This document shows positions 2,434-36,540 of a DNA stretch of 41,904 bases, piece by piece. The notes below the pieces were generated by a model that saw nothing but the letters and a program-made list of their open reading frames with translations, had not been told where the DNA came from and did not search any database. The DNA is taken from assembly GCA_018398765.1 (NCBI GenBank), contig JAHBMJ010000724.1, positions 1 through 41,904 on the forward strand, given 5' to 3'. Source of the DNA: Chromera velia (Eukaryota; Sar; Chromeraceae). A program made the translations under genes and the position numbers. Within the stretch, counting starts at the first letter, position 1; each line of letters starts with the position of its first letter.

Positions 2434-4198
2434 ATGACGGAAAGGGGATTCGGAACGGTGACCGACGTCAAGTTGGGCAAGGCAGAGAATTCCGACTTTC
2501 CTATTTTGTGCGAAACGTGTTTGGGGGGTAAGTTGTTTGGTCTGTTCTTTTGAGCCTTCTGTCGGTTCCATGTCATACGTTGCTTATTCCTGTCTTGTGT
2601 TTACACCGGTGTCTGCAGACAACCCTTATGTTCGGATGATCAGAGGGGAAGAGGACAAAGAGTGCAAAATCTGTGCTCGTCCTTACACTGGCTTCCGGTG
2701 GAGGCCTGGCGGGCAGCAGAGTCGGTACAAGAACACGATCGTGTGCCAATCATGCGCACGTTTGAAGAACGTTTGCCAGACCTGTCTGTTCGACATGGAG
2801 TATGGCCTCCCGGTTGAAGTCAGAGACAAATACCTTGAGGAGGCACAGAAAGTCCAGCTGCCTGCTTTGGGCCCCAACAGAGATTTCTACACCTCCCAGT
2901 TTGAGGCACAAGGACAGGCTCTGCAGGCCTACGGGAAGGCAGCAGCCCATCCGATGCTCTCCAAACTTGCCCGCACAACTCCTTACTACAAGAGGAACCG
3001 CACCAAGGTGTGTTCCTTCTGGCAGAAGGGGGAGTGTACCAGAGGGGAGTCGTGTCCGTTCTTCCACGGCGATCCCGACCATGACCCCGGTCTTGCGGAC
3101 CAGAACATCCGAGATCGCTTCTCAGGAGAGAACGACCCTGTAGCCAAGAAGATGATGAGAAGAGCGGACGACCGCATGAACCTGACAGCACCAGAGGACA
3201 GATCGATCACCTCTCTGTTTCTCTCCGGACTTCCAGATAAGTGTGGGGAGTCGATGATCAGAGACAAGTTCTATCCATTCGGCGAAATCCTCTCCATCAA
3301 AATGATGCCCACATCGCAGTGCGCCATTGTCACCTACGCCACCAGAAAGTCCGCAGAGGCTGCAGCGTCGCAGCTCTTCAAGAGGCTCACAATCAACGTG
3401 AGTGAGAGAGTTTGTGATCAAACAAATCAAACGTCTTCTCTCTCTACGTGCAGTGAGCGATTCGGTCTCTTCCCGCTGAGTGTGCATGCAGCCGTCTGTG
3501 CAGAGCATCTTTTGTGCTTTTCCCCACCTTTGTTCCGCCTTTCTCGCCCCCTCGCAGTTCTGCTCTTATTCTCGTGCACTCTTTTCTTTTGATGGTCCTT
3601 TGTCTTTGCGTTTTTTCTTTTCTTCGCCGCGGTTGTTTTGCAATCCCCACACTCTTGCTGCCCTTTGGATTTGTTGCATGCCGGTCTCTCTGCGTTTTTT
3701 TACTCTTTCTTGTGTGTCTCTCCGAAATTTCTTCGCAACCCCCCTATTTTCGCTACACCGATGCTTCTTCCCCTGTGACATGTTCACTGACTGCCGCACA
3801 CAAGTATCTCTCCCTTCATATCAACATTCCTTTCCATGACTGTTCCTCCTTTGCAGGACGCCCAGGTTCGACTGGCTTGGGGACGCGGCGGCACGGAGGG
3901 GGGTGGTGCCTCCTCCTCCTCCCGTGCTGTGGACCCTGACGGCCCCAAACCCCTGACCTCAGGGGCCCCCTCAGCCTCCCAGATGCCTGCCTACATCCCC
4001 CCCCCAGTGCCCTCGATGATGCAACAGCCGATGCAGCAGTTCCCCCACCCAGCAAGGGGGGCGCAATTCCCACCACCTGGACCTGGCATGGGGATGGGCA
4101 TGGGAGGTATGGGGAGGCCCCCGCCGATGATGCCCTTCATGCCGCCTCCACCTATCCCCCACCATGCGCGGGGGCGAGGGAGGGGCCCGCCCAGATGA
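2434..4198 (+). CDS. RBM22: RBM22/Ecm2-type pre-mRNA splicing factor
   Basis: Three exons: 2434-2527, 2619-3397 and 3857-4198 (introns of 91 and 459 nt, donors GTAAGT and GTGAGT), giving 404 residues. The family sits in the activated spliceosome near the U6 internal stem-loop and the catalytic core, in the nucleus. Order of parts: an N-terminal Cys-rich zinc region (CETCLG, CKICARPYTGFRW, CQSCARLKNVCQTC, residues about 26-85), the conserved LARTTPYYKRNR block, a CCCH finger (C-x7-C-x5-C-x3-H, about 163-181), then an RRM (about 229-305) with SLFLSGL as RNP2 and CAIVTYAT as RNP1. The tail is Pro/Gly/Met-rich and ends in RGRGRGPPR. The start fits because the first exon gives the family's DFPILCETCLG and the phase-1 splice restores DNPYVRM. 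Length and order match the human protein (about 420 residues). Confidence 0.95.
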
Positions 4199-6885: not shown

Positions 6886-8802
6886 GATAGATAGACAGAT
6901 AGATAGAGAGAGAGAGAGAGGGTATCGCGTACACAGATGTACTTCTATGCAATATGCATGCACAAGAAAAAAAAGCCTGCTGTGGTGCTTTCAAGCAGAC
7001 AGGCAGAAAGGCAGGGGGCAGCAGACCACTTGCTCTTTTTCTTTCTTTCTTTCTTTCTTTCTTGATCCCCCCCCTTCTCCTTTGTTTTTCTCTTGGAGCC
7101 CCGTGTCAGGTACAGACAGCAAATGAAGAAAAGAATTTGAAGTTCTCAAGGACAGTCAGTCATCATCCAGCCTCAAACAAAGACACGTACACGAATCGTA
7201 TCTATCGGTCTTTCTTTTCTTTTGCACTTTTGTTCTTTTGCTTCACGCGACCGAAAGGTAGAACTTACTTCCTTTTCTCTTTCCTTCCCTCCTTCCTTCC
7301 TTCCTTCCTTTCTCTCTCTCAAACATACAAACAGATAACAGAGAGGCAGAGAGACAGAAAGACCGCATAATCTGTTTTGTTTTTTTTTCTTTCTTTTTGC
7401 TTTTAGACCAAACACAAGACAGACTATCTGTTTCTTCTTCTTCTCCCACACAAGACAGAAAGACAGACAGACGGACAATGCAAACAGCCGGGGGGGTACA
7501 AATGGATACATCGGGCGGGGTACAGGAGGTGGGAGAGAGACATACGACACAGTGAGAGAAGGAAGACAGAGAGACAGAGAGATGCAGCCACAGTCTTGGA
7601 GGCAGGCAGGCAAGCAGGCAGGCAGGCAGGGAGGCAGGCAGGCAGGCAGGCAGACAGGCGAGAAACGAGCGATTCCCCCTCGAACAGAAGAACCACAGAA
7701 ACACCCCATGCCAGCCTCACGTACCTCCCCACGTTGTGTCTCCAACCACTGTCCCCCTTTTCTGCAGCTGCACGTCGAACGAGAATTCCTCCCCTCCAGA
7801 GGCGGTCTTGTTGCTGCACAAGACGTAAATCGGCTTGCTGGGACCAAAGGATTTTCCAGGAACCGTCTCTTCTGTCACGCCCTGCGTAAGTGTGTACACG
7901 TACTTGCCCGCAGTGCGATAGTAAGTGTCGATCACATGCGTGTTTGGAGGCATCACGTAGCTGAGGTAGTAGTGGACCAACTCCGGGCTTCCCCCCATGT
8001 TATTCCGGAGGTCAAATATCAGTGCGTCTGTGTCTGCCACTCTACTCATGGCGGCATCGACTGCACTGGTGACCTCTGGCTGTTTGCCGGGGAAACACGC
8101 GATGTCCAGGAATCCCACTACGCCCCCTCCGGGTCTTGGAAGGGTGGTCACGTTCCGTATACATGTTTCCACTGGCTTCTCTGCTTTTTTCTCTGTCTGC
8201 ATAGAAACATCGACAGGCTTCCTGAGCCTCGGTGTGGAGAAGGGTTCGGAAAAGGGGAACTGGAAACAGACGGAAAAGTGCCTGTCGTGGCACACACCGA
8301 AGTAGACTTCAAACACATCCGTCACAAAATCTTTGCACGAGACGGAAAGGGAGTCTCTATCCATCAACCTTCCAGCCTCCCATGCTGCTAGTAACTCGAC
8401 ATTCATTGCCCTGGCCGTGGTTGCGTAAACGTAATTCTCATCGATCAAAACCCTCATTTGATCTGCAGCCGTCTCTGCCGTCTCCTTGGAGACTGTGCAC
8501 TTCTCAAGTGCACTGCCGTATTTTCGCCCAAACTCCTCCTCACTCAGTTCCCCCTCTGGCAGAAGCCACCCAGTGGACTCCTTACAAGCAGTCACGTTGC
8601 CCTGGGAGAGTTGATGGGCACCACCATCGCGCAGAAGTAGAAGGGGGCTGCCGTGTACCGCTCGGGAAATTCCGAACATGCCACCAGACGCCGCACGGCC
8701 ACTCTGCGCATCTGAAGCCCTAGTCGAGGCGTTAGAGCAGCAGACCAACGAAAGAAGACAGCACAGAACGATGCTCATCGATGTCATCTGGTCGGAAAGC
8801 AT
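6557..8802 (-). CDS. Secreted S41-family (C-terminal processing/IRBP-like) peptidase
   Basis: Two exons on the minus strand: 8802-7725 and 6771-6557, separated by a 953-nt intron (donor GTACGT, acceptor TGTGTGCAG), giving 430 residues. S41 peptidases are serine proteases that cleave near protein C-termini. The N-terminus (start 8802; alternatives at 8787 and 8778) has a signal peptide core, MSIVLCCLLSLVCC. FGVCHDRHFSV (about 168-178) matches the family's conserved H-containing segment. LIFDLRNNMGG (about 261-271) matches the DLRxNxGG motif. TASGGEEF (Ser about 335) matches the nucleophile segment, and GDTTWGGAHP is rebuilt exactly across the splice. The end matches family C-termini (FVPSG, GVSPDVHV, ALDRALEMI). 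I cannot identify the general base with certainty. The intron holds long CA/GT, CTTT and GGCA microsatellites. The gene is divergent from the lectin gene. Confidence 0.88.
6778..6925. repeat. (CA)n, (GATA)n and (GA)n microsatellites in the peptidase intron
   Basis: More than 100 bp of CA dinucleotides runs into GATA and then GA repeats. On the coding (minus) strand this becomes a long GT tract lying directly upstream of the TGTGCAG acceptor of the peptidase gene. The open frames through it (VCVC, HTHT) are artefacts of the repeat. Confidence 0.9.
7040..7660. repeat. Clustered CTTT, CTTC, CAGA and GGCA tracts
   Basis: A series of short tandem tracts inside the S41 intron: CTTT at about 7040-7063, CTTC at about 7285-7312, a CAGACTATCTGTTTCTTC piece at about 7420-7440 with CAGA around it, and GGCA at about 7600-7655. 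The middle piece is a member of the dispersed CAGA/TATATG family described under 32749-33166. Confidence 0.8.
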
Positions 8803-9246
8803 TATCTGAACGGGCAGCAGCGTGCGGTCGTCTCTAATACGATCATGTATTGACGTACACTGAATTCGGCCCCTCACGTCTGTCAAGCTTGCATACACGT
8901 GGCATCTCCCATTTTTCAAATTGGCGTCTTAGATTCTGTTGTTGTACGTGTGAAAAAAGTGTAGATGCGATCGAAGGTGGCAAACTAAGGCCATCGTTCC
9001 GGTGGTCACTCGCGGATACGTCAAGTCTATAGCTCTTGCATGAATGCAGGATGCATGAGCCGGCCGTCTCGCGCGCGCGCGCGTGTGCGCGCGAAAAAGT
9101 CAAACTGCATGTCAAGGATCAAAAAAAATTTTTTTTTTTTTTGAAGATTTCAAAAATTAAGTCAGGCTACACACACAAAAAAAAAAAAAAGCAAAGCTAA
9201 CATAAGCTAACAACATTTGAACTTCGCGACTTTCTGGCCGTCATGC
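8803..9246. promoter_or_regulatory. Divergent intergenic region (peptidase and lectin genes)
   Basis: This 444-bp region lies between the start of the minus-strand S41 peptidase gene and the first proposed exon of the plus-strand lectin gene, so it is the likely shared promoter area. It contains an alternating CG/GC tract near 9068-9092, a palindromic A8T14 block near 9123-9142 and an A14 run near 9177-9190. I see no recognisable TATA box. Regulatory function is inferred from position only. Confidence 0.4.
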
Positions 9247-12200
9247 ATGGGCAATCAGCGGGAGGATCGTCGGGAGGTTCCAAGGATCGGGAGGTTCCAA
9301 GGAAATAAAACAGGTGGAAGAGTCGGGCTGAAGTGTGGTGAGTGATCGTCTAGTTCCTTCTGCAGACGTGCAAAGGCTGTCTCTGTCTGTCCGTGTCCAG
9401 AGACCCTCTCTGAGATTCGACTGATAGACCCGTCTCTGCCGAGTGTATATCCTTCTATTTTTTCTTGTGGTGTCTTCCGTAAGGTGTCTGTTTTTCGGTG
9501 CTCTGTTTCTTGATAGCAGTAAGGACTGTTCCGTTTCTCACTTCCCCTTTCTCCTCTCATTTGAGTTTCATCATGAACATCGAGGGCGTGGAAAGATGAA
9601 AAGAGTGGATGCGCATTCCTTTTTTTGCGTGTCAAGAATGTCCCGTCTCTTCCCTGCGCTTCGTATGTACATGCAGACGCTCCTCATGGGCCTCCAGGGG
9701 CGGTGAGCCCTCTGGACTCTCGCAAGGAGCGTGGACCCCGGAGACGTCCGCACCTGCTCCACGAGGACACCCACGTGCTGCAGTCAGACCTCCTGAAGGG
9801 TGAGGAGGACCAAAAGTCTATGGGGGAGACGCTCCTGAGTGTTTCCAACAAGGAAACGAAGAGGAACCACAGGCGGATCAGAAGGCGTCAGTCAAAAAAA
9901 GAGAGCGCTCTGAGTCTATCAACTCACCACACTATTCCTCTTCTTCTCCCCTCTTCGCATTCGCTCTGGATGTATTCGTCCACATTGATGGAACGAAATT
10001 CGCTCTCCCGTCCGCTGTCCGCTCTTACCACCCCTCTGCCCCCTCCTCACTGGCTCATTTTTCGCATTCCTTCACCCCAACCACTCCTCCCCGCCTCCAC
10101 TTTCTCTCACACTCGCACCTTCTTCTTCCCCTCTCTCTGCTGTTTCTGCTGCAGGCAAGGAGTCGGCGTCCGAAGTCCGACAGGGAGACGACGATGACGA
10201 TGACGACGTGACGAACGCCGGGTTCCTTGCTGTCGACTGCGTGAACACTCTGCAGGAGGCCGAGGACTTCTGTGACAGTGAGGGGGGCGTGCTGGTGCGG
10301 TTCGACTCCGCCCAGAAGCAGGACGCCGTCAAGGGTCTCTACCCGTTCTTCCAGCAGAAGTGTGGGACCACCATGGTCTGGGTAGACGGGTGAGTGAGTG
10401 AGTAGGTGCATGGGTTGGGAGTGTGCTTTCTTTGTGGGGGGGCGATGCGCGCGTGTGGCGGGGCGAGGGGATGAAAGAGGGAATGTTGCTTCCTTCCTGC
10501 CTGTGTACGCACAATCGGAATCTGAATTGATGGGTCGGTTTGTGTGCACTTCAGTGGTGTGTGTGTTCTGAGGGGTTATCTCTGTCTCTACTGTAGTTTG
10601 GTCTGTTTACTGCCGATTTCTCACCGTAGGAGGGACAGAGAAGGAACGAAAGAGAGAATGCCTGAGCTGATCTTTTCTCGTTTTTCTCTTCTTCGCTCTG
10701 TGTGGGTGGGTGGGTGGGTGCGGGTGTGCCTACTTCTTGTCCTCTCTTGCAATCAGTGCACGACTGTGCCTGCCGGCAGTCTCGATGCAAGCGTGTAGCC
10801 TCATCGCAGCAGAAGAGCAGCCAGTTGAACAGCACTGAAAACTTCTTCGTGTGGCTATGAAGCTGCTCCTGAATTTGGGTTCCCCGTTCTCGTTCCACTG
10901 CTTCTGCCCCCCTTCATCTTTGTCTGTCTGCAGCACCGACGGCTACAAGGAGGGGACGTGGAAGCACCTCGACGGCACTCCCTGGACTCACCAACCCGAA
11001 TGGAACCCTCACGAACCGAATGACTGGGGCTCTGGAGTCAGTCAGTCAGGCGGGCAGTGAAGAGACAGGCCGAGCGAGGATGGACGAGAAGGGAAGCAAA
11101 TAAAAAAGAAGACTGAGCGCACTAGAGAGACAGAGAGAAAAGAAGAAAGAATCGAAGCGTGCTGTTGTTGAGGCGTGGTGGTGACTCATTTTGTAGAAGT
11201 GCAATAACAAAAAGGTATCTGCCTTCTTTTCCTTTTCTGGTGGACATCTATCTGTCTTCTGGTCTGCCGGCTCTGCAGACCCCTCCCCGTTTCCACACAC
11301 GGCATCGCAGTCAAATCACCATGTCTATCTGTAATCTCACCCGAATTCCGTACGCCACTCTGCCTCTCCTTCTTCTTCTGTGTGTACTCAGGAGGACTGT
11401 ATGGTCACTTCTGGGGACGCGAAGTTGAACGACATCCGTTGCAACCTCCACCGCAAGGCAGTGGCTCTCTGCCAGGACTCCCCAGGCAATCCTGTGGAGG
11501 CCCAAGGGTTCCTCGCAGCTGAGTGTGTGAACTCTCTGCAGGACGCGAAGGACTTCTGTGAGAGCGAGGGGGGAGTGGTCGTCAGGTTTGACACTCCAGA
11601 GAAACAGAAGAAGGCAGGCGACCTCCTCGACTACTTCGAGAATGAATGCCAGTCGGACAGGATCTGGGTAGACGGGTCGGTCGATTTTTTTGGTGACTGA
11701 CTGGAGGTTGATGGGGAACAGGGGAGAGAGGGGTGAATGCATCCGTCTGTGTTTCTTTGTGTTTTAACGGTTTCCACTCTCCATCCATCAAAAAGGGAAG
11801 GAAGGTTCTTGATGTGCGTGCGTCAGTGCCACCTCCTCCTTTGCGTGCTTGCCCATCTTGTGCCAGGCAGACATCTTGTCTCCTTTTCTTTCCTTTCCCT
11901 TTCCCCTGCATTCATTGGCGTGAGTCTGATTGCAGCACGGACAGCACGAAGGAGGGCACGTGGTTGAACTTTGATGGGTCCAAGTGGAAGCCTGCGAAGT
12001 GGTACTCGGGAGAGCCCAACGATTGGGGATCTGGGGTGAGTGCGTGCGTGCGTGAGAGAGTGCAGGGGTGAAGCTACGTGAGGCGTGGGGTGGGTGCGTG
12101 GGTGGATCTATAGAAGGGCCCTCTTGAACTCTTGCGCCTGTAGATGCCGAACGCCGTCTCGCCGGTCCACTCTCTGCTCACGGGCTCTCTTTCCCTTCTT

Positions 12201-14166
12201 CTTTCTTCTTGTCTGTACAACGTCTTTGCTCACAGACTGTTTGTTCTGTCAGTTTGGCTCGTGTGAAGCTGAACCACTTTTCCCCGTCACCTGTCTTTTC
12301 GGACAAGTAAAATAAATAAACGGACAATTAAGGTAGACTTCTCTTGCGATAAACGGACGGACGGACAAGTAAAATAGATAAATGCATGAACAAACGTCTG
12401 CAGGAGGACTGCATCACGACTTGGAGAGGCACCTCTGAGTTGAACGATATGCCCTGTGGGTGGCACGGGAAGTCTGTGGCACTCTGCCAAGACGCCCCGG
12501 TGGATCCTGTGGAAGCTGCTGGGTTCCTCGCGTATGAGTGTGTGGACTCTCTTCAGGAGGCCAAGGACTTCTGTGAGAGTGAGGGAGGGTCTATCGTCCG
12601 GTTTGATTCTGCAGCAAAGCAGGAGGCAGTGGGCAAACTGATCCCCCACTTCAAGCACGTGTGCAACATCGGCAGGGACGGGGTGTGGGTCGACGGGTCA
12701 GCCAGACTGAAGGACAGACAGTAGCGAAAGACAAAAGAAAGTAAAAAGGGGGTCCCTCAGATAGACGCACAGTTAGGCAGAAGAAACGAGAAGACAGAAA
12801 GGCAGGCAGGCAGGAAGGGAGGCATGAAATGAAAACAGGAAGGGAGACTGCAAGCTTTCTTTTTGTTTCCCTGCGTTTACCTCGTCCACGAACGTTCAGT
12901 TCCTTTGCGAAGCAGGAAGAAAGACGAAAACAGGGGTTGCAAGCCAGAAAGAATGAGGTTTACAGACAGACAGGCGGACACGCAGATATATCTGTCCCCC
13001 CCCTGCCTTCCTCTCTTCTTGAATGCAGCGCTGACATCATGAAAGAGGGCAAGTGGAAGTACTTCGACGGCACCGACTGGACCTTCCAGCCCAAGTGGGA
13101 CAGCGGAGAGCCGAACAACCACAAATGGGCCCACTACAAGCAAGTCAGTCAATTAGTCACTCAGTCAGTCAGTCAGTCGGAGAGGGACCCTTCTCTTCTC
13201 TTCTCGGCTGAATGAAGGACGCCATTTCACTACACAGTGCACGAATGTGGAAAGAAAAAAGACGTGGCCTGCCTGTCCGGCAACCAAGACAAAGAAAGAT
13301 TCATTTTGTCGAATCGGTTCGACAGTGAGTCGAAGGATCGGTCTGGCATTAGGAGACGGTCTGACTGAGGATGCGTTTGTTTACACGGTGCGTCACACCA
13401 GACAAAAAATGGAGAAGGGTGAAAAGAAACTTTGTGAAACTGTTGTTTGCAGCCTAAAGGTCATGAAATTTCTTTTCTCAACTGTCATGCTTATTCATGC
13501 ACTGCCCTTGGCCCAACTTTGCATGCAGGAGGACTGCATGATGACCTGGAAGGAGACCGAGAAGCTGAACGACATGCCCTGCAACTACCACGGGAAGACC
13601 GTCGCCCTCTGCCAGAACTACGTGGGCAACAGACCTGCACCCGATCCCGTCGCTGACGCTGGCTTCCTTGCTGCCGACTGTGTGGACTCTCTCCAGGAGG
13701 CCAAGGACTTCTGTGAGAGCGAGGGCGGAGTGGTCGTGAGGTTTGACACTTCGGCAAAGCAGCAGGCAGTGGGAGGACTCCTTGACTACTTCGAACATAA
13801 GTGTGACTCCAAGCGCGTCTGGGTCGACGGGTGGGTCTTTTCGGTCGCGAGCTGTAGGCAGTTGAGAACAAAAGGAAGAAGCGTGTTTTTTTCATTTCTT
13901 TTTTCTTTCGTTTTCCCCTCTTTCTGCTTCTGGTGTCGTAAGTGTTTCATTTGAGCCTCTTGGTAGGCAGTTCCTTGATGAGTTGCTTCTCAGGCGATCC
14001 GATGCTTCCTCATTCACGATTTTCCTGTTGTCCCAAGTCGCGTGATCTCATGTCTTGCCTGCCTCTCTGCCTGCCGATCTGTTCCTTGCCTGTCGTCTGC
14101 CTGTCTCTGTTCACCCCTGCTTCCTGCATTCCGATTTCCTTCAACACTCTCTATCTCTCTCCCTCC

Positions 14167-14200
<34 letters not shown>

Positions 14201-15555
14201 GACTGACTGGAGGAAGGAGGGCAGTTGGAAGTTCTTCGACGGCTCCGACTGGGTCCACAAACCCGTCTGGTACAGCGGGGAACCCAACGACCATGTGTTC
14301 TCTACATTTTCCGGGGTCAGTCAGTCAGGCTGTCCGGTGGCTTTGCTTTCGTTGCATTTTCACTCTTCTTCAGTTTTTTCCTTTTTTCTTGGTACAACCA
14401 TCTCGTTCAATTGCCGCACTTCTCTCCTGACGTCCAACTGCCCTTTTCCTATTCCTGCGAAGGTCTCTCGAAATTCGCCAAGTGAAAATCAATTTCGAGT
14501 GAGGGTCTTCATTCACTTCCCTCACCCAATTTTTCTCCCTCCATCCCTTAATTCGATTCTTGCAGGAGGACTGCATGATGACTTGGAGGGACACAGAGAA
14601 GCTCAACGACATGCCCTGTGCTTGGACAGGCAAGACAGTGGCAGTCTGCCAAACCAAACCCCCTCCCGTCCCCCCCCCCGCGAATCTGAACATTCAGACG
14701 ATCTGCGAGAACCACTCGAAGACGCTCAGCTGCCCTTCCGGGAAGGTCATCAAGATGAAGAAGGCCTGGTACGGTCGGGAGAAGCCGGGCAACGAGGTCT
14801 GTGCCCACTCGTCCATCAAGACCCTCACGTGCCACCAGGACATCTTGGACAAAGTGGGAGACCACTGCGATGGAGAGGAGAGTTGCGATTTCAGGCCCCA
14901 CAACGGCATTGCGGGGGATCCTTGTGGCGGCACTTATAAATACGCAGAGGTCGCGTATGAGTGCGAGGATGCTCCCACCGATCCTGTGGAGGACGCTGGA
15001 TTCATCGCTGCCGACTGCGTGAACTCTCTTCAGGAAGCGAAGGACTTCTGTGACAGTGAGGGGGGCCGTCTGGTCCGCGTGGATTCTTCCCAGAAGCAGG
15101 ACGCCATTGGAAGCCTCCTCGATCATCTGAACCAGAAGTGCCACACCAAGAGGGCATGGATCGACGGGTGAGTGCGTCTCTCTAGCTGTCAGTGTGTCAA
15201 AGTGTGTTTGGGAACAGAATCGGGGAGGGTCTGTCAGCGATGCGCTTTTTCGCATGAATGACGTCGTGATACTCTGGTGTGGCTGTGACAGAGTCCACTT
15301 AGAGGCTCGGGAGGGAGGGAGAGTCAGAGGAGAGGGAGGGAGGGAAATTTGAAGGAAGGAAGGAAGGAACGAATATGAGGACAACGAACGAACACTCTTT
15401 CTCTCGCCCGTTGATACATAAAGACTTGCAGGAGTGCTCACCTAGCTCTGTGTTTGTGCGCGCGTGTGTGTATTTTTGTGCGTGCCTGTGTGTGGAAGGA
15501 CTTGCGAAAGCCTTCCTCCATGTATGCTGACGCATATGTATGCACATTCCTTCTG

Positions 15556-15616
<61 letters not shown>

Positions 15617-15829
15617 GACCGACGCCGGAAAAGAAGGCACTTGGACTTTCTTTGACGGCACTGCCTGGACCTTCACCCCTAAGTGGTACAGAGGAGAGCC
15701 TAACGACTGGGGATCAGGGGTCAGTCAGTCGGGGAGGTGGAGGGGGGGGCGGTCAAAAGAGGAGCTAGAAGTGTACTAGTTGAAAGAGAGACCGGACTCT
15801 CTTTTTCATCTGCTGCTGTTTCTGTCCGC

Positions 15830-15864
<35 letters not shown>

Positions 15865-18321
15865 CAAAAGCAAAAAGAGAACCATATAGTCTGTCGCCCA
15901 CCCCCGGACACTCTGGCTCTGATGCGCTACTTGATGAAGAACATCGCTTTTTTGTTGTTGTTGAACGGCCCACCCTGCGTGCAGGAGGACTGCATCACCA
16001 CCTGGCAGAACACAGAGGAGCTCAACGACATGCCCTGTGGGTGGCACGGGAAGACTCTCGCCATCTGCGAGGCTGTCCCCACCCCCGCCCCGAACCCGAA
16101 CGAGCACACTACGAACATCTGCGAGGGCCGCACAGGGTCTCTGACTTGTCCTGCCGGCAAGATGATCAGAATCATCGACGCTTGGTATGGCCGTGAGAAG
16201 CCAGGTTCCGAGGTCTGCCCCCACTCCTCCATCAGGACGCTCAAGTGCAACAGAGACATCTTCAATCACGTCCACACCCACTGCGACAGCACGCAGAGCT
16301 GCAGCATCAGACCCACCAACGGGATTGTGGGAGACCCGTGCGGGGGCACATACAAGTACGCAGAGATCACTTACGAGTGCGAAGACATGCCCTCCACCAC
16401 AACCACCACCACAACACTTCCCCCGACCACCACCACGACTACTACTACTACCACCACTACCACTACTACAACCACCACCACTACCACTACTACAACCACC
16501 ACCACTACTACTACTACCACCACTACCACTACTACAACCACCACCACTACCACTACAACCACCCCTCCTCCCACAACCACGACCACCACCACTGCCGGTC
16601 TTGCCGCATCCTGCGCTGAGCTGAGTAAGTTTTTTTTTCTTTTTCTTCTCTCTTTTCCTCTTCTTGTGAGGCTGCTGGGCTTCCAGAGAAGCAACATGAC
16701 TGCATGAGAGAGAGGGGACGTGTATTCTCAAATATGATTGAAGAAGCACACGAAACCCGTGCAAATTCGGAAGATATTTGGTACGCAACAGCTGCCGTTC
16801 TCTCTTTGCATCTTCAATGCCTTCGTCCGTCCTTGTGTTCGTGATCCCCAAATCGTCCTGCCAGCCAGACAGTGTTTTTCTTTTGCGCTTCTCACTTCAC
16901 AGTTGATTGCAAGTCCTGCCTCGAGGCTCTCTCTCAACGAGGCTTCCACTGTCGCCCCTTCGTGTGGTGCCCTCCTTTGTGAGCTATTACCTCCATTCCT
17001 CCGCGTTCCTTGTTGGACCCCCGTCTCTTCAATGGCACCCTGATTCGTTCATGTTTTTTCCGTTTCTTGTGCGATTGAAGGCTTGAAAAATGAAAAGAAT
17101 GAATGAATGCGCGATCGAGTGACTGCAGACAATTGCGGATGGGGCAACCCGAATTGGTCTGGACGGTGCAAGGCAACGGTTGGTCGCTCGGTTGGTCTTT
17201 CTGCCCCAATCAACGGTCGATGCATGGGTCGAGCTGGGGTTGTTCGTTCTCTTTCCTGCCTGCCTGCACGGTTGCAGCGACGAATAAGCACAAAGTCAGA
17301 TCACAGAGAATTCTTTTGCGATAAGAAAACTGCCCGAAGACCAATCCGTGCCCACAGCAGATTACAGCATCTTCAAGTCATTTGTTTTTCTTGTATCACA
17401 AAACTCTCCCTCCCTTCCGTCCACCCCCTCAGGCGGCTCCTCTCTTCTACTCTTCACATGTGTCTGTTCATTCTTTCTTTCTTTCTTTATCCCTCGTGTC
17501 CCCATTTTTGCTTTTTTAATCTGCATATGTCTTTCCTACCTGGTTCCCTCCCTGCCTCCCTCCGTGCAGACGGTGAACGGTGTCTCTGGCTACGCATGCA
17601 CATGCTTTGGGGGATGGGAGGGACGCGACTGCGGAACCCAGATTCCTCCTGGAGAGGGCATGACGGCAGCCTCGTGCGCAGACCTCAGTCAGTCAGTTTA
17701 TCTGGAAGGGAAACCCACCCACGTGCACATCTCTGCGCTTGACTTCAGTCTGCCTACATCACTTCCTTCGAAGCGTGTTCCTGCGGTTTTATTCTCCCTC
17801 GTTCTTCTCCGCATCACAGTGAAGCAGTCCGAGTTGCGCCTTGTCTTTAACGTACTTGTGTCTCTGGGGACCACGTGTTCTCCTTGATTCCCTCCCTGTT
17901 GTTTGCAGACAACTGTGGCGGGGAGATGGGCAAGGGAGGGTGCATGCACTGGGTCTGTCCGTTAGGCAGAGAGTGAGAGAGAGGGAGTACGCCTGCTTTG
18001 CTTTGCTTTCCTTTCCCGTTCTCCATCCTTGCCTTTTCCCATCGGCTTGCCTCTCCTTAGCACAGCCGTTTCTTCCCTGTTTCGTTCTGTCCTCTCTTCT
18101 ATGTGCAAGTGTTTCCACTTACGCGTTTTCTCTGTCGCTTTCCACGGAGTTTTCCTCCATTTTTCTGCTTGTAGCAGCTGCTTGGTGTTGCTATCACGCT
18201 CCTTCTGTGCTGCCGCTTTCCTTCCTTCCTGTGTTGATTTGTGTTGCAGAACAACTACAGCGAGTACTACTGCGTGTGCAACGATGGGTGGACTGGGAAG
18301 ACGTGCGAGACTGCAGCATGA
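9247..18321 (+). CDS. Multidomain secreted-type lectin: 5 C-type lectin + 2 SUEL + Thr stalk + 2 EGF
   Basis: I join 17 exons by frame: 9247-9337, 9677-9799, 10155-10389, 10934-11036, 11392-11675, 11936-12035, 12404-12696, 13029-13143, 13529-13830, 14201-14315, 14566-15167, 15617-15719, 15985-16624, 17129-17178, 17570-17687, 17909-17952 and 18250-18321. The sum is 3390 nt, 1129 residues and a stop. The fold order and every junction from 10155 on are well supported by repeated family motifs. The first two exons rest on matching phases only and show no signal peptide, so the true 5' end may lie elsewhere. The product should bind sugars outside the cell: five EPN-type C-type lectin domains, two rhamnose-type lectin domains and EGF modules. 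No membrane segment follows the EGF modules, so it is probably secreted. Such mosaics are known in alveolates for adhesion or particle capture; the exact role here is unknown. Confidence 0.85.
10155..16084 (+). other. Array of five C-type lectin domains (CTLD1-5)
   Basis: Each domain spans three exons. One exon carries an ADCVNSLQEAKDFC-like start followed by a WVDG end. A small exon carries KEGTW-FDG and EPN. The third opens with EDC and carries LNDMPC and a final Cys. EPN (mannose/fucose/GlcNAc-type calcium and sugar site) is present in all five small exons (10934, 11936, 13029, 14201, 15617). The classical WND is LND throughout, so Trp is lost but the calcium-ligand Asn-Asp is kept. Six cysteines per domain fit three disulfides. 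Domain 3 has NNHKWAHYKQ and domain 4 NDHVFSTFSG where the others have NDWGSG between EPN and EDC, so the sugar-loop edge differs. The close similarity points to recent tandem duplication. Confidence 0.9.
14160..14200 (+). repeat. (GT)n tract forming a splice acceptor
   Basis: About 14 GT units run straight into GCAG, the acceptor of the lectin exon at 14201. A second case, (CT)n(GT)nGCAG, is at about 15558-15616 before the exon at 15617. The tracts replace an ordinary polypyrimidine tract. Confidence 0.85.
14692..16386 (+). other. Two SUEL/rhamnose-binding lectin domains
   Basis: SUEL1 is at about 14692-14968, between CTLD4 and CTLD5. SUEL2 is at about 16110-16386, after CTLD5. Both carry the family's two diagnostic motifs: YGREKPG (the YGR motif) and GDPCGGTYKYAE (the DPC motif). 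They also carry the start IC-(6-7)-LSCP/LTCP and eight or so conserved cysteines. In the family these bind L-rhamnose or D-galactose. Each sits inside the exon that also holds a CTLD end, without its own introns. The two copies are very similar, suggesting duplication together with a neighbouring CTLD. Confidence 0.92.
16390..16605 (+). other. Threonine-rich (mucin-like) stalk coding tract
   Basis: About 70 codons, nearly all ACC, ACT or ACA, with Pro-rich edges (LPP near the start, PPP near the end), lie in frame in the exon 15985-16624 between SUEL2 and the first EGF module. Such Thr/Pro tracts are usually O-glycosylated, extended spacers. The mix of Thr codons shows selection for threonine or an old repeat, not a fresh trinucleotide expansion. 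The opposite-strand poly-Val frames are shadows. Confidence 0.9.
16612..18321 (+). other. Two C-terminal EGF-like modules
   Basis: Module 1 is made of SCAEL (end of exon 15985-16624), NNCGWGNPNWSGRC (17129-17178) and GYACTCFGGWEGRDC (17570-17687). Module 2 starts with SCADL at the end of that exon, then NNCGGEMGKGGC (17909-17952) and YYCVCNDGWTGKTC (18250-18321), ending at TGA. Both show the EGF pattern with CxCxxGWxGxxC. The two modules share the same split: a phase-1 intron after ADL/AEL and a phase-0 intron before the second half. The donors of the two small exons (GTTGGT and GTCTGT) are weak, but the frames join exactly. Confidence 0.8.
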
Positions 18322-24504: not shown

Positions 24505-24660
24505 CTGCAGAGAGAAAAAGAGAGAATGTGCATCATCTGCTCAAACAGCATGAGGACATACGGAGAGGAATACAGAACCAAAGATGCACAGCCGAGGTTC
24601 GCGTCAAGTTCCCTAAGGACTTCAGAAGTTACACCCTGGCAAGATGCCCAAAATTTCTAG

Positions 24661-25950
24661 GAGTAAGTGGGAGTAAGTGGGAGCAAGTGGGAGCAAGTGG
24701 GAGTAAGTGGGAGTAAGTGGGAGTAAGTGGGAGTAAGTGGGAGTAAGTGGGAGCAAGTGGGAGCAAGTGGGAGCGAGTGGGAGTAAGTGGGAGTAAGTGG
24801 GAGTAAGTGGGAGTAAGTGGGAGTAAGTGGGAGCAAGTGGGAGCAAGTGGGAGTAAGTGGGAGTAAGTGGGAGTAAGTGGGAGCGAGTGGGAGCGAGTGG
24901 GAGCGAGTGGGAGCAAGTGGGAGTAAGTGGGAGTAAGTGGGAGCAAGTGGGAGCAAGTGGGAGTAAGTGGGAGTAAGTGGGAGTAAGTGGGAGTAAGTGG
25001 GAGCGAGTGGGAGTAAGTGGGAGTAAGTGGGAGCAAGTGGGAGCAAGTGGGAGCAAGTGGGAGCAAGTGGGAGTAAGTGGGAGTAAGTGGGAGTAAGTGG
25101 GAGCAAGTGGGAGCAAGTGGGAGTAAGTGGGAGTAAGTGGGAGTAAGTGGGAGTAAGTGGGAGTAAGTGGGAGTAAGTGGGAGTAAGTGGGAGCAAGTGG
25201 GAGTAAGTGGGAGTAAGTGGGAGTAAGTGGGAGTAAGTGGGAGTAAGTGGGAGTAAGTAGGAAAAAGTGGGAGTAAGTGGGAGTAAGTGGGAGCAAGTGG
25301 GAGCGAGTGGGAGTAAGTGGGAGTAAGTNNNNNNNNNNNNNNNNNNNNNNNNNNNNNNNNNNNNNNNNNNNNNNNNNNAAGTGGGAGCAAGTGGGAGTAA
25401 GTGGGAGTAAGTGGGAGTAAGTGGGAGTAAGTGGGAGTAAGTGGGAGTAAGTGGGAGTAAGTGGGAGTAAGTGGGAGTAAGTGGGAGTAAGTGGGAGTAA
25501 GTGGGAGTAAGTGGGAGTAAGTGGGAGTGAGTGGGAGTAAGTGGGAGTAAGTGGGAGTAAGTGGGAGTAAGTGGGAGTAAGTGGGAGCAAGTGGGAGTAA
25601 GCGGGAGTAAGTGGGAGTAAGTGGGAGCAAGTGGGAGTAAGTGGGAGTAAGTGGGAGTAAGTGGGAGTAAGTGGGAGCAAGTGGGAGTAAGTGGGAGCAA
25701 GTGGGAGCAAGTGGGAGCAAGTGGGAGCAAGTGGGAGTAAGTGGGAGCAAGTGGGAGCAAGTGGGAGCAAGTGGGAGCAAGTGGGAGTAAGTGGGAGCAA
25801 GTGGGAGTAAGTGGGAGTAAGTGGGAGCAAGTGGGAGTAAGTGGGAGTAAGTGGGAGTAAGTGGGAGTAAGTGGGAGTAAGTGGGAGGAAGTGGGAGCAA
25901 GTGGGAGTAAGTGGGAATAAGTGGGAGTAAGTGGGAGTAAGTGGGAGTAA
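24661..25950. repeat. 10-bp minisatellite with assembly gap
   Basis: About 124 visible copies of GGGAGTAAGT, with variants GGGAGCAAGT and GGGAGCGAGT, lie head to tail. They are interrupted by 50 N (25329-25378), a typical fixed-size assembly gap. The true length is therefore unknown and probably larger. Since the unit is 10 bp, all three minus-strand frames stay open with a 30-bp/10-residue period (LLPLTPTYSH). This yields three apparent long proteins of about 370-450 residues. Identical open frames in all phases argue that these are repeat artefacts. The tract probably lies in an intron or upstream of the minus-strand exons. Confidence 0.95.
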
Positions 25951-33158: not shown

Positions 33159-35942
33159 TATATGTTGAGAGAGAGAGAGAGAGTAACAGGGGTAAAGGTG
33201 AAGAGCCAGAAGAAAACTCAGTTGCTCAAGCATTCCTTTGTTGAGGAAGTCATACAAATTTTCAGGCAACACCTTCCCGACTTTGAAGCAAAGCGGCCTG
33301 CTTGTCTTCCCACCTCCGACGCGACACAAAAAAGAACCGAGCACAGGCTCTACACACACACGCACCACACCATCTGAGTGCCTGTGCCTCCCCTTGCCTT
33401 CATCCCCTCAGGTGACCAACCTCTTTGTTCTCGTTCTTCTTGTAATCTGTCAAAGAGAACAAAGACAGCCGAAGGGGAGACGGTCAGAGAGATGAAACGC
33501 TTGTCGAAAATTGCGTTTGTCAGTTTTGCTCTTTCTCTTTCTGTCTGTCTGCCCTGCGTGCCTGCTTCCCTACCTCACATATGGAACTCTTTGTACTGCT
33601 CTCGCGTGCGGGGCAGGTCGCAGAAAAGAGAAACAAGTCAGAGAGAGACTCGCCTGGTGCCCTTGAGGTGCTGGGTTTGGTTCACTTGCACAAAGAAAGA
33701 AGTCAAGCAAGCAAGGAAGGAAGGAAGAGCACTGAAGGTCAATGCTCTAGCTCTCGGACACACACCCCAATGCTCTCTCTCTCCATGGACTGGCTGGCGC
33801 ACGCACCTTCGAAGAACCTCTTGATTTCTCGCAGTCGGTGTTGAGGGACCTGATCGATCGAGTCGATGTCTCTGAATTCTGTAATTAAGGAAACAAACAG
33901 ACAAACAAAGAGGGTGGTAAAAAGATGAGACAGGACAGGCAGGTGCTCTCCCTCCATCCTCCATTCACACACAGCCCACCGAGGAATCGATATTTCAAGC
34001 TCCCTGAGAGGACAGACAAATGTTCATGTCCAAATGAATCGGTAGAACGCAGCAACCAACGCCTTCCCCCACATTCTTCCTGTCCGCCTGTGTGTCTGTC
34101 TGTCTGTCTGTGAAGAAGAAACGTGTAGTCTGTCTGTCTGTCTGGATGGATGGATGGATGGATGGATGGAAACTGACCAGGATCGTCAAGGTGTACACAG
34201 ATGATTTTGTCGTCGCGTTCCCCCTGGTCTGCCAGAAGTGGGAAGGAAGGAAGGAAGGAAGCAAGGAAGGAAGGAAGGAAGCAAGGAAGGAAGGAAGGGA
34301 AGGAAGGAAGGAAGGAAGGAAGGAAGGAAGGAAGAAGGGAAAAGTGAGAAGGAAAGAAAAGAAGGAAAACAGGGACGTGAGGCCGATCGAACGGCCTCCT
34401 TCCTTTCAAAATCTATGCCTGCCTCTGTGCGTGCCTTTCGTGCATTTTCTTCCGTGTGCGTGCGTGCGATCATGGCACACAGGGAGGTAAGGAGTCGAAA
34501 GAAGAGAAAGGCGATGAACCAAGAGGAAATGCACGGGACGGGACAAGATGAGAGGAGAGGAGAAGACAAGATGGTTTGGGGTGGAAAGGGAAAGAAATCA
34601 AAAGAGGGACCCTCATACGAAGGAGAGGACAGAGAGGAGTAAGAAGGGAAAAGTAGGAGGTTAGTGGCCGTCTTTACCCTATCTCTCTCTACTGATTTAT
34701 CCGGCGAAAGAGATTTGGGGGACAGTGGGGGGAGGTAATCAGACAGAAAGAACACTTCGCCGTCTACGAAAGGCGGGCCGAAGGGGGACCTCACTCACTC
34801 ACTCACCGAGCATGTCCATATAGCCTGCAAAAATCAGCAGACAACACAGCACCATTCGCTCAAAATTGAAAGAAAGAAGGCAAGAAACGCGCCCATGCGC
34901 CCATACACAGAAAGGTGAACATGGGCAAACTAGTACAAACTCGACCCCGCACATTCACTCACAGACAAATACACGCACATTTAGACAAACTCAAACGGAC
35001 TCCAGAGAGGAGAGGAAGTAGATGTGTGAGTGTTCAGCCAGCAGACCATTCCATACCATACTGTCAAAGGGTCTGAAAGACGGTATGCAGCCCCACTCTG
35101 TGAAGGGAGTTGACTTTGCTGATTCTCGTCGCTCTGCAACTGTCCTTTAAGCCTGACAGTAGCACATCACTCGGAAGAGAGAGAGAGAGACCAGGAAAGA
35201 CGGACCGATCGGCTTCACCCTCAGAATTGAGAGCGGCACCACAGGCTCTTGCATCAGCACCAGAACGTCCTGCAGCCATGCAGATCAGATGACAGAGAGG
35301 CAGACTGACTGACTCACTGAGCCAAGGAGACGGGGAGGGAGACAGCGCACGAATGAAGCACACGGAGCAGCTACACAGACTCAAGCTGTCAAAGATAAGC
35401 ATTGCAAACCAGGGCGGGAATCTTGAAGGCAAAAAGACGAACAGGAGCCACGAAAAGCAAAGCAATATCTCGATCTCTTCAAGGAGACAGGACTGTGCGA
35501 ACTGACCAGAGGATCATGGTCTTCACCAAGTGTGCGCGGTATGAAACCGTAATTTGCAGGGTAGATCACACTCGAGTAAAGAATGCGATCCACTTTCAGC
35601 AACCCGGAATCTGCACGCACAGTCTCAGGCAGAACTCATCAAGACATCTGTTGCCGATGCCTGCAGGAATGTGTTGCCGAAGCTCTGAAGAACACACGCA
35701 CCTTTATCCAGCTCATACTTGACCTTGCAGCCTTTGGGGATCTCAATGACGCACATGAACTCATCGGGAGCCTTCTCTCCGATGTCAACATCGTGCCAGG
35801 GATGCGTTGTCGTGGACATGGTCGCTAGGGACGCAGCTGCAAGGGTTTCAGTAAACCGAGCTACTGAATTTCGTGAAGTTGGCCGGAGTGCAGCTGTCAC
35901 CAGAAAGAGGCCTGCACAGAGGAACACAAATGGCCTTAGCAT
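32178..35942 (-). CDS. PPA: Soluble inorganic pyrophosphatase, plant/bacterial family I
   Basis: Nine minus-strand exons: 35942-35702, 35610-35507, 35269-35206, 34824-34807 (18 nt), 34228-34178, 33878-33807, 33446-33421 (26 nt), 32716-32652 and 32226-32178. Total 690 nt, 229 residues; every junction keeps frame. It hydrolyses pyrophosphate to phosphate, pulling biosynthetic reactions forward. Family signatures in order: [52 protein letters not shown] (catalytic Asp cluster), [49 protein letters not shown]. In the signature D-x-D-P-L-D the x is His, a variation. The leader (start 35942) is hydrophobic, [15 protein letters not shown], followed by a Ser/Arg/Thr-rich stretch, like a signal-plus-transit plastid leader. 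The internal ATG of [11 protein letters not shown] could give a cytosolic form. An upstream in-frame ATG lies at 36059. Confidence 0.95.
32749..33166. repeat. Cluster of CAGA tracts alternating with an ACTATATG...CTTC unit
   Basis: Five copies of a roughly 40-bp unit that begins GACTATATGTTTCTTCTTC and continues with CCCTCCTTTTCTTCATGA are separated by (CAGA)n tracts, one with (CA)n. Copies start at about 32749, 32803, 32913, 32980 and 33069. A shortened one starts at 33049 (GACTATATCGTCTTTTC) and a truncated one at about 33157. They lie within the intron between pyrophosphatase exons 33446-33421 and 32716-32652. Confidence 0.85.
34098..34335. repeat. CTGT, GGAT and GGAA tandem tracts
   Basis: A reversed member of the CAGA/TATATG family (GAAGAAGAAACGTGTAGTCTG between CTGT tracts, 34098-34142) and a GGAT tract (34145-34170) lie in the intron between pyrophosphatase exons 34228-34178 and 33878-33807. 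A long GGAA tract (about 34240-34335) lies just upstream of the first of these exons. Confidence 0.85.
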
Positions 35943-36540
35943 TGATGCCCTGCCTTCATGGCGATCAAGGTTGCGATGTGAGGTTGAAAGCCCATCTCCG
36001 GAGGTACAACAATGGGTCTGAAAGAAGCGAGTAAGTCGTGCATGCACCGAGCAAATCATAAACAAATCTCACACGCGATCTCACACGCTGCATGTCTCGA
36101 ATCTTGTACGCAATTGTACGCACATGAAGTCGATCGCGCGGGCGGCGCGCGGCCCTAGCCTGGCCCTATATAGCCGCGCATGCATGCTGCGCGGGCGGTG
36201 GCGCGGGCCGCGCCATGCAAGCGCCTGATAAGCGCCTGGCTGACCATGACTGACCATCTTTCATCATTGAGAGTCAGAGTCTCAGCTAGCTAGTCACTCG
36301 GTGTGTGGGACACAGACTTCCCCTTGAACCGTTGACATCACTGCCAGGCTTTTTTGCAAGGATTCAGAAATGATTAGAAAAGTATGGACATGCCAAAGTC
36401 GTGTCAAATCCATGAAAGCCACAGTCTGATTTGACGCCATTTTTGGACCCGGCCCAAAAGGAGACGGGTGAGTGGTGACGTGACGTACTAGGTCTGGATG
36501 CGTAGATTTTCTTGAAGCTGCAGTCGTCTGCCTTTGACAG
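35943..36540. promoter_or_regulatory. Divergent intergenic region (pyrophosphatase and uL15m genes)
   Basis: About 600 bp lies between the two start codons. It contains a strongly GC-rich block at about 36125-36235 with many CpG (GCGCGGGCGGCGCGCGG, GCGCGGGCCGCGCC) around CCTATATAGCC, which could be a TATA-like site. CGCCTGATAAGCGCCTGGC is a short internal repeat. The position and CpG density suggest a shared promoter for two housekeeping genes, by inference. Confidence 0.4.

What the first reader, a model, noticed from the sequence alone, without database searches (positions are those of the whole stretch)
9247..18321. Lectin mosaic: five CTLDs, two rhamnose-type lectins, a Thr stalk and two EGF modules in one gene
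Seen: repeated EPN and LND motifs, YGR and DPC motifs of SUEL lectins, a tract of about 70 Thr codons and EGF CxC patterns, all joining in frame over 15 exons (17 with the two tentative 5' exons). Known: EPN-type CTLDs bind mannose-like sugars with calcium; SUEL domains bind rhamnose or galactose. Inference: one secreted protein with seven carbohydrate-binding domains of two unrelated folds, a possible capture or adhesion protein. I do not know a described protein with exactly this order.
Basis: partly seen in the sequence, partly recalled or inferred. Interest (0 to 1): 0.8.

Follow-up and report, generated by a model that had tools for sequence, protein, structure and literature searches.

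The report
Secreted-type lectin with seven sugar-binding domains
A single-celled alga carries a gene for a probable secreted protein that strings together seven sugar-binding domains of two unrelated kinds; the parts are all well known, but this exact assembly was not found described in the papers searched.

Summary
Seventeen exons (9247-18321, +) join in frame with GT-AG introns into one 1129-residue frame. Pfam scores five C-type lectin domains (PF00059, E 2.3e-46) and two SUEL lectin domains (PF02140, E 5.4e-30) well above cut-off. All five CTLDs keep the EPN...EDC...LND residues of a mannose-type calcium site. Each join between lectin domains lies inside one uninterrupted exon, so separate genes are unlikely. 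Repeats are under purifying selection. The Thr-rich tract has 60 Thr in 69 residues. The two EGF-like modules have the right cysteines but miss Pfam's cut-offs. The two 5' exons, hence the signal peptide, are unproven.

The genome is probably Chromera velia (inferred). CTLD plus SUEL in one protein is known in SpREJ3 and human PKD1L2, SUEL plus EGF in Acanthamoeba; secreted sugar-binding and Thr-rich proteins are in print for chromerids. Two SUEL relatives in this genome sit in Thr-rich frames. Best reading: a soluble, multivalent, dual-specificity extracellular lectin. New variant of a known kind; modest interest.

The parts
9247..9799 (+). tentative 5' exons 1 (9247-9337) and 2 (9677-9799); no signal-like segment; may be wrong
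   Evidence: in-frame GT-AG joins; alternatives also in frame
9428..9518 (+). alternative 5' exon with a strongly hydrophobic segment, in frame with exon 3; unproven
   Evidence: splice enumeration
10214..11481 (+). CTLD1 (exons 3-5)
   Evidence: Pfam Lectin_C 53.6 bits
11500..12496 (+). CTLD2 (exons 5-7)
   Evidence: Pfam Lectin_C 40.7 bits
12515..13621 (+). CTLD3 (exons 7-9)
   Evidence: Pfam Lectin_C 40.1 bits
13655..14658 (+). CTLD4 (exons 9-11)
   Evidence: Pfam Lectin_C 35.2 bits
14680..14970 (+). SUEL1 rhamnose/galactose-type lectin domain, wholly inside exon 11
   Evidence: Pfam SUEL_Lectin 66.3 bits; PDB 5h4s E 4.1e-47 for the three-domain chain, best stretch 3e-17
14992..16077 (+). 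CTLD5 (exons 11-13)
   Evidence: Pfam Lectin_C 55.0 bits; PDB surfactant protein D E 1.4e-10
16108..16386 (+). SUEL2, wholly inside exon 13
   Evidence: Pfam SUEL_Lectin 64.9 bits
16387..16593 (+). Thr-rich stalk, 69 residues with 60 Thr, inside exon 13
16612..17632 (+). EGF-like module 1 (exons 13-15), six cysteines
   Evidence: patterns; phmmer; below Pfam cut-off
17675..18306 (+). EGF-like module 2 (exons 15-17), six cysteines, same intron phases as module 1
   Evidence: patterns; exon table
18319..18321 (+). stop codon; no transmembrane-like segment before it

Best explanation
One gene of an alveolate alga (probably Chromera velia) encodes a soluble extracellular protein that works as a multivalent, dual-specificity lectin. 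Five calcium-dependent mannose-type CTLDs and two calcium-independent SUEL domains form the N-terminal head, which cross-links or captures glycans outside the cell: its own wall and mucilage, bacteria, or coral mucus. The Thr-rich tract, probably O-glycosylated, spaces this head from two C-terminal EGF-like modules that probably bind another extracellular protein. Shown: gene structure in sequence, domains, conserved binding residues, purifying selection on the repeats. Inferred: transcription, secretion, sugar binding, ligand, role.
For: One open frame with GT-AG joins. Exons 5, 7, 9, 11 and 13 each carry the end of one lectin domain and the start of the next part without a stop. Pfam hits above cut-off for 7 of 7 lectin domains. 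CTLD5 aligns with surfactant protein D including the E-P-N, E and N-D positions; 5 of 5 CTLDs keep them. SUEL1 aligns with sugar-binding SUEL lectins of known structure (5h4s, CSL3). dN below dS in 11 of 11 repeat comparisons, pN/pS 0.33-0.47; third codon positions of exons 3-13 are 75% G+C against 50% in the introns (the printed position labels are shifted because exon 3 starts at codon position 2). No 17-residue window of the model exceeds a mean hydropathy of 0.8.
Against: No signal peptide is established, and a hydrophobic 5' alternative could make it membrane-bound. No transcript, expression or binding data. EGF modules are below HMM cut-offs. Binding residues were checked by alignment only; no structure was predicted. 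dS of 0.9-1.7 is near saturation, so the selection estimate is rough. Passages on the coral-Chromera pairing speak of coral lectins, not of lectins of the alga (PMC5864212), so a coral-facing role has no direct support.
Confidence: 0.55

Rival explanations
1. A cell-wall or matrix cross-linker: it holds the alga's own wall polysaccharides together during growth or division rather than recognising foreign cells.
For: Two close SUEL relatives in the same genome (C3915, C3885) lie in Thr-rich frames; the C3915 frame also has four chitin-binding stretches and two SUELs, which looks like a wall-related family.
Against: Those relatives share only the SUEL and Thr parts, not the CTLDs; no fetched locus outside the window matches both (0 of 35 loci).
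Confidence: 0.25
2. A membrane-anchored adhesin or gamete receptor, with a signal-anchor made by an alternative 5' exon.
For: A strongly hydrophobic frame at 9428-9518 can be spliced in frame to exon 3. SpREJ3 and PKD1L2, which also join CTLD and SUEL, belong to a family of membrane proteins (PMC1934368, passages).
Against: T-rich introns often give hydrophobic frames by chance; the upstream start and donor it needs are doubtful; no REJ, GPS or PLAT domain appears in the Pfam scan.
Confidence: 0.12
3. Two or more neighbouring genes wrongly joined, for instance an EGF gene separate from the lectin gene.
For: Exons 14-17 are short (44-118 bases) and joined only by splice signals; EGF models are below cut-off.
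Against: The first EGF cysteine lies in exon 13 with the Thr stalk, and both EGFs share intron phases. The lectin domains join within exons.
Confidence: 0.06

Closest known systems
Sea-urchin SpREJ3 and human PKD1L2 (PKD1 family; PMC1934368, passages)
   Same: CTLD and SUEL in one chain
   Different: The family are large membrane proteins with REJ, GPS and PLAT domains; here there are five CTLDs, two SUELs, a Thr stalk, EGF-like modules and none of those domains in the Pfam scan.
Acanthamoeba castellanii SUEL-EGF proteins (PMC4053784, passages)
   Same: a protist with SUEL domains joined to EGF modules in about half of 11 proteins
   Different: the passage does not report CTLDs in them
Chromerid mucin-like and sugar-binding secreted proteins (PMC4501334 Appendix 5)
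   Same: same group of organisms by inference; Thr/Ser-rich stretches and sugar-binding extracellular domains
   Different: this architecture is not spelled out in the section read; its supplementary file was not readable
Collectins such as surfactant protein D
   Same: EPN-type CTLD; best solved match
   Different: collectins reach many sites by trimerising through collagen stalks (recalled); this protein has its sites in one chain
SUEL lectins of sea urchin (5h4s) and salmon (CSL3)
   Same: tandem SUEL domains, best solved matches (the source animals are recalled)
   Different: the solved chains are SUEL repeats of 284 and 195 residues; the recalled ANYGR and KYL motifs read AWYGR and KYA here

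Membership tests
C-type lectin domain (PF00059), mannose-type | profile score above curated cut-off | tested here: met
   5 of 5 domains, 35.2-55.0 bits against 22.6
C-type lectin domain (PF00059), mannose-type | EPN, E and ND calcium-site residues (roles recalled) | tested here: met
   5 of 5, CTLD5 aligned with SP-D
C-type lectin domain (PF00059), mannose-type | calcium-dependent mannose binding | not testable with these tools
   needs protein
SUEL/rhamnose-binding lectin (PF02140) | profile score above curated cut-off | tested here: met
   2 of 2, 66.3 and 64.9 bits against 31.4
SUEL/rhamnose-binding lectin (PF02140) | eight cysteines with YGR and DPC motifs (recalled) | tested here: met
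   eight Cys, WYGR and DPC in 2 of 2
SUEL/rhamnose-binding lectin (PF02140) | KYL motif (recalled) | tested here: not met
   both read KYA; taken as variation, since the profile score is well over cut-off
SUEL/rhamnose-binding lectin (PF02140) | rhamnose or galactose binding | not testable with these tools
   needs protein
EGF-like domain | curated Pfam score | tested here: not met
   EGF models 10.6-14.7 bits, all below their cut-offs
EGF-like domain | six cysteines and CxC pattern | tested here: met
   2 of 2 fit both recalled patterns
PKD1/REJ family | REJ, GPS or PLAT domain and membrane segments | tested here: not met
   none in the Pfam scan at E up to 1; no hydrophobic segment in the model
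Secreted protein | N-terminal signal peptide | tested here: inconclusive
   none in exons 1-2 by hydropathy; alternative hydrophobic exon possible; no predictor run

The most novel reading that the evidence does not exclude
A photosynthetic relative of the Apicomplexa assembled, independently of animals, a soluble single-chain lectin that reads two unrelated sugar classes at once (calcium-dependent mannose-type and calcium-independent rhamnose/galactose-type), and uses it to bind bacteria or coral surfaces: an animal-like recognition molecule in an alga.
Probability: 0.25. Interest if true: 0.55.

Novelty: new variant of a known kind. Interest (0 to 1): 0.35.

Why it matters
It is a clear example of domain shuffling giving an animal-like multivalent recognition protein in a probable free-living relative of the Apicomplexa. 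If it binds bacterial or coral glycans it would give a testable molecule for how such algae recognise partners. As it stands it is a domain-order novelty built from known modules.

Tried and rejected
Considered and rejected: (1) chance motifs - profile scores and five-fold repetition rule this out. (2) Separate genes - domain joins lie within exons. (3) Pfam hits NosL and BAMBI in the full protein: NosL has 26.4 bits against a cut-off of 24, but no single stretch passes and its best stretch is 19 residues; BAMBI is below cut-off; both taken as artefacts of the repeats. (4) A prokaryotic source for the SUELs: 13 bacterial loci matched, 11 were read, 9 of these scanned by Pfam; SUEL was found in 9 of 9 (8 over cut-off, 1 below) and a CTLD in none at E up to 1e-4 (several frames run off the fetched piece). 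In 10 of the 11 the motif reads YGT where the window has YGR; in the eleventh (L060) that part was not in the match. Identity of the 11 is 32-47%, so none looks like a donor. No viral relative among 29 candidate stretches. (5) A SUEL tree of 15 sequences from the genome left the window domains unresolved, and SUEL1 is as close to SUELs of C3885 and C3915 (61-64%) as to SUEL2 (62-64%), so the order of duplications stays open. (6) Organism check by published primers: the listing offered none that I followed, and PMC6379472 gave only universal primers (passages). (7) A piece upstream of the C3885 SUEL that by eye looked like a glycosidase gave no Pfam hit at E up to 0.1. (8) In one search the C1658 match began at query residue 93, inside the CTLD part; the CTLD queries found no CTLD there, so I do not count it as one. 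(9) A literature search on wall and adhesion of Chromera listed nothing to the point.

Full report
What is there. The window is the whole of contig C723 of a 177.8-Mb, 4040-contig genome. I rebuilt the gene exon by exon. Seventeen exons between 9247 and 18321 on the + strand join with 16 GT-AG introns (221-544 bases) into one frame of 1129 codons and a stop. Pfam finds five Lectin_C stretches (157.4 bits, E 2.3e-46) and two SUEL_Lectin stretches (104 bits, E 5.4e-30) in the joined protein. Taken singly, 5 of 5 CTLDs (35.2-55.0 bits, cut-off 22.6) and 2 of 2 SUELs (66.3 and 64.9, cut-off 31.4) pass. The order is CTLD1-4, SUEL1, CTLD5, SUEL2, Thr tract, EGF1, EGF2.

Is it one gene? Each CTLD is cut by two introns at matching places and phases. 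The main point is that the joins between lectin domains do not depend on splicing: exon 5 holds the end of CTLD1 and the start of CTLD2, exon 7 CTLD2-CTLD3, exon 9 CTLD3-CTLD4, exon 11 CTLD4-SUEL1-CTLD5, and exon 13 CTLD5-SUEL2-Thr tract-first EGF cysteine, each in an open frame. The EGF exons 14-17 rest on splice signals and cysteine pattern alone. No transcript was available.

Repeats and selection. CTLDs are 55-68% identical to each other and the SUELs 62%. By Nei-Gojobori counts dS is 0.9-1.7 and dN 0.25-0.35 over 11 of 11 pairs, so the copies have been kept as protein; dS is near saturation, so these values are rough. Third codon positions of exons 3-13 are 75% G+C against 50% in the introns between them (labels there are shifted by one because exon 3 begins at codon position 2).

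Binding sites. All five CTLDs keep E-P-N, the E of EDC and N-D, which in CTLD5 line up with the same letters in surfactant protein D; that these bind calcium and mannose-type sugars is established knowledge, not a result here. The SUELs keep eight cysteines, WYGR, GDPC and YKY and SUEL1 matches rhamnose-binding lectins of known structure (5h4s E 4.1e-47 and CSL3 E 9.5e-26 for the multi-domain chains).

Stalk, EGF and ends. The Thr-rich stretch is 69 residues with 60 Thr. Both EGF-like modules have six cysteines and fit two EGF patterns that I recalled (2 of 2); phmmer aligns them with Notch1 at E 1.2e-4 for the whole sequence and 0.0039 for the best stretch, yet no Pfam EGF model reaches its cut-off. 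Exons 1 and 2 contain no signal-like segment. An enumeration gave 132 in-frame 5' combinations, the most hydrophobic using an exon at 9428-9518; T-rich introns give such frames easily, so the 5' end is open. No transmembrane-like segment is seen elsewhere in the model.

Relatives in the same genome. PF02140 has 15 places on 10 contigs (14 over cut-off), two of them in this gene. PF00059 has 12 places on 9 contigs, none on C723: that search reads frames without regard to introns and missed this gene's own five split CTLDs, so it can miss others. With the CTLD5 protein as query, 23 matches include 14 on C723 and 9 elsewhere. Across only C723 carries both kinds, and 0 of 35 non-window loci (17 window loci left out; many overlap, 33 are about 3.3 kb, two are 8 kb) match both. 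CTLD plus SUEL therefore looks unique within what could be searched, with the caveat just given. The nearest SUELs are on C3885, C3915 and C1658 (53-64% identical). The C3885 and C3915 frames, which I read, are Thr-rich; the C3915 frame of 976 residues has two SUELs and four chitin-binding stretches. The C1658 frame was not read through.

Which organism. This is an inference; the held assembly is smaller, and no sequence test of identity was possible.

What is known. CTLD and SUEL together are described in SpREJ3 and hPKD1L2 (PMC1934368, passages). SUEL with EGF is described in Acanthamoeba, about half of 11 SUEL proteins, among candidate microbe receptors (PMC4053784, passages). In three monogonont rotifers short secreted SUEL lectins lacked other conserved domains, while bdelloids have SUEL in large membrane-associated proteins (PMC8878817, passages). 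Chromerids are reported to have Thr/Ser-rich mucin-like proteins and numerous secreted sugar-binding proteins (PMC4501334 Appendix 5, whole section). Passages on the coral-Chromera pairing concern coral lectins (PMC5864212), and passages on alveolate LAP proteins describe other domains (PMC11285972). The listings I saw (capped) did not name this architecture; the supplementary file of PMC4501334 that lists such proteins was not readable here, so this gene may already be in it.

Mechanism and verdict. The most likely working is a soluble multivalent lectin: seven sites in one chain raise avidity, two folds widen the sugars read, and the glycosylated stalk sets the head apart from the EGF end. 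Whether it binds bacteria, coral mucus or the alga's own wall cannot be told from sequence; the wall-like relatives make a structural role a serious rival. It is a new arrangement of known modules, worth recording, not a new kind of system.

Noticed in passing
window 7717-8919 (-): Divergently transcribed neighbour: peptidase family S41 stretch (57.9 bits) with a start that by eye looks like a signal peptide; it limits the lectin gene's upstream region.
   Followed up: partly
window 2537-3592 (+): First part of a gene like the splicing factor RBM22/Slt11 (STL11_N 79.8 bits, RRM, CCCH zinc finger).
   Followed up: partly
window 24660-25950: Long 10-base tandem repeat, about 129 copies (unit GGAGTAAGTG), with unknown bases inside; it translates as a repeating peptide on the - strand and looks like a minisatellite.
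   Followed up: no
L049 (C3915:20000-27999), - strand frame of 976 aa: Paralogue with two SUEL domains, four chitin-binding (PF00187) stretches and long Thr tracts; further similar frames lie beside it.
   Followed up: partly
L053-L062, L065: SUEL-like domains in bacterial contigs, including Gillisia mitskevichiae, many in multi-domain proteins; YGT in place of YGR in 10 of the 11 read.
   Followed up: partly
window 35625-36065 (-): Frame that by eye resembles a soluble inorganic pyrophosphatase exon (recalled); no Pfam hit at E 0.001.
   Followed up: no
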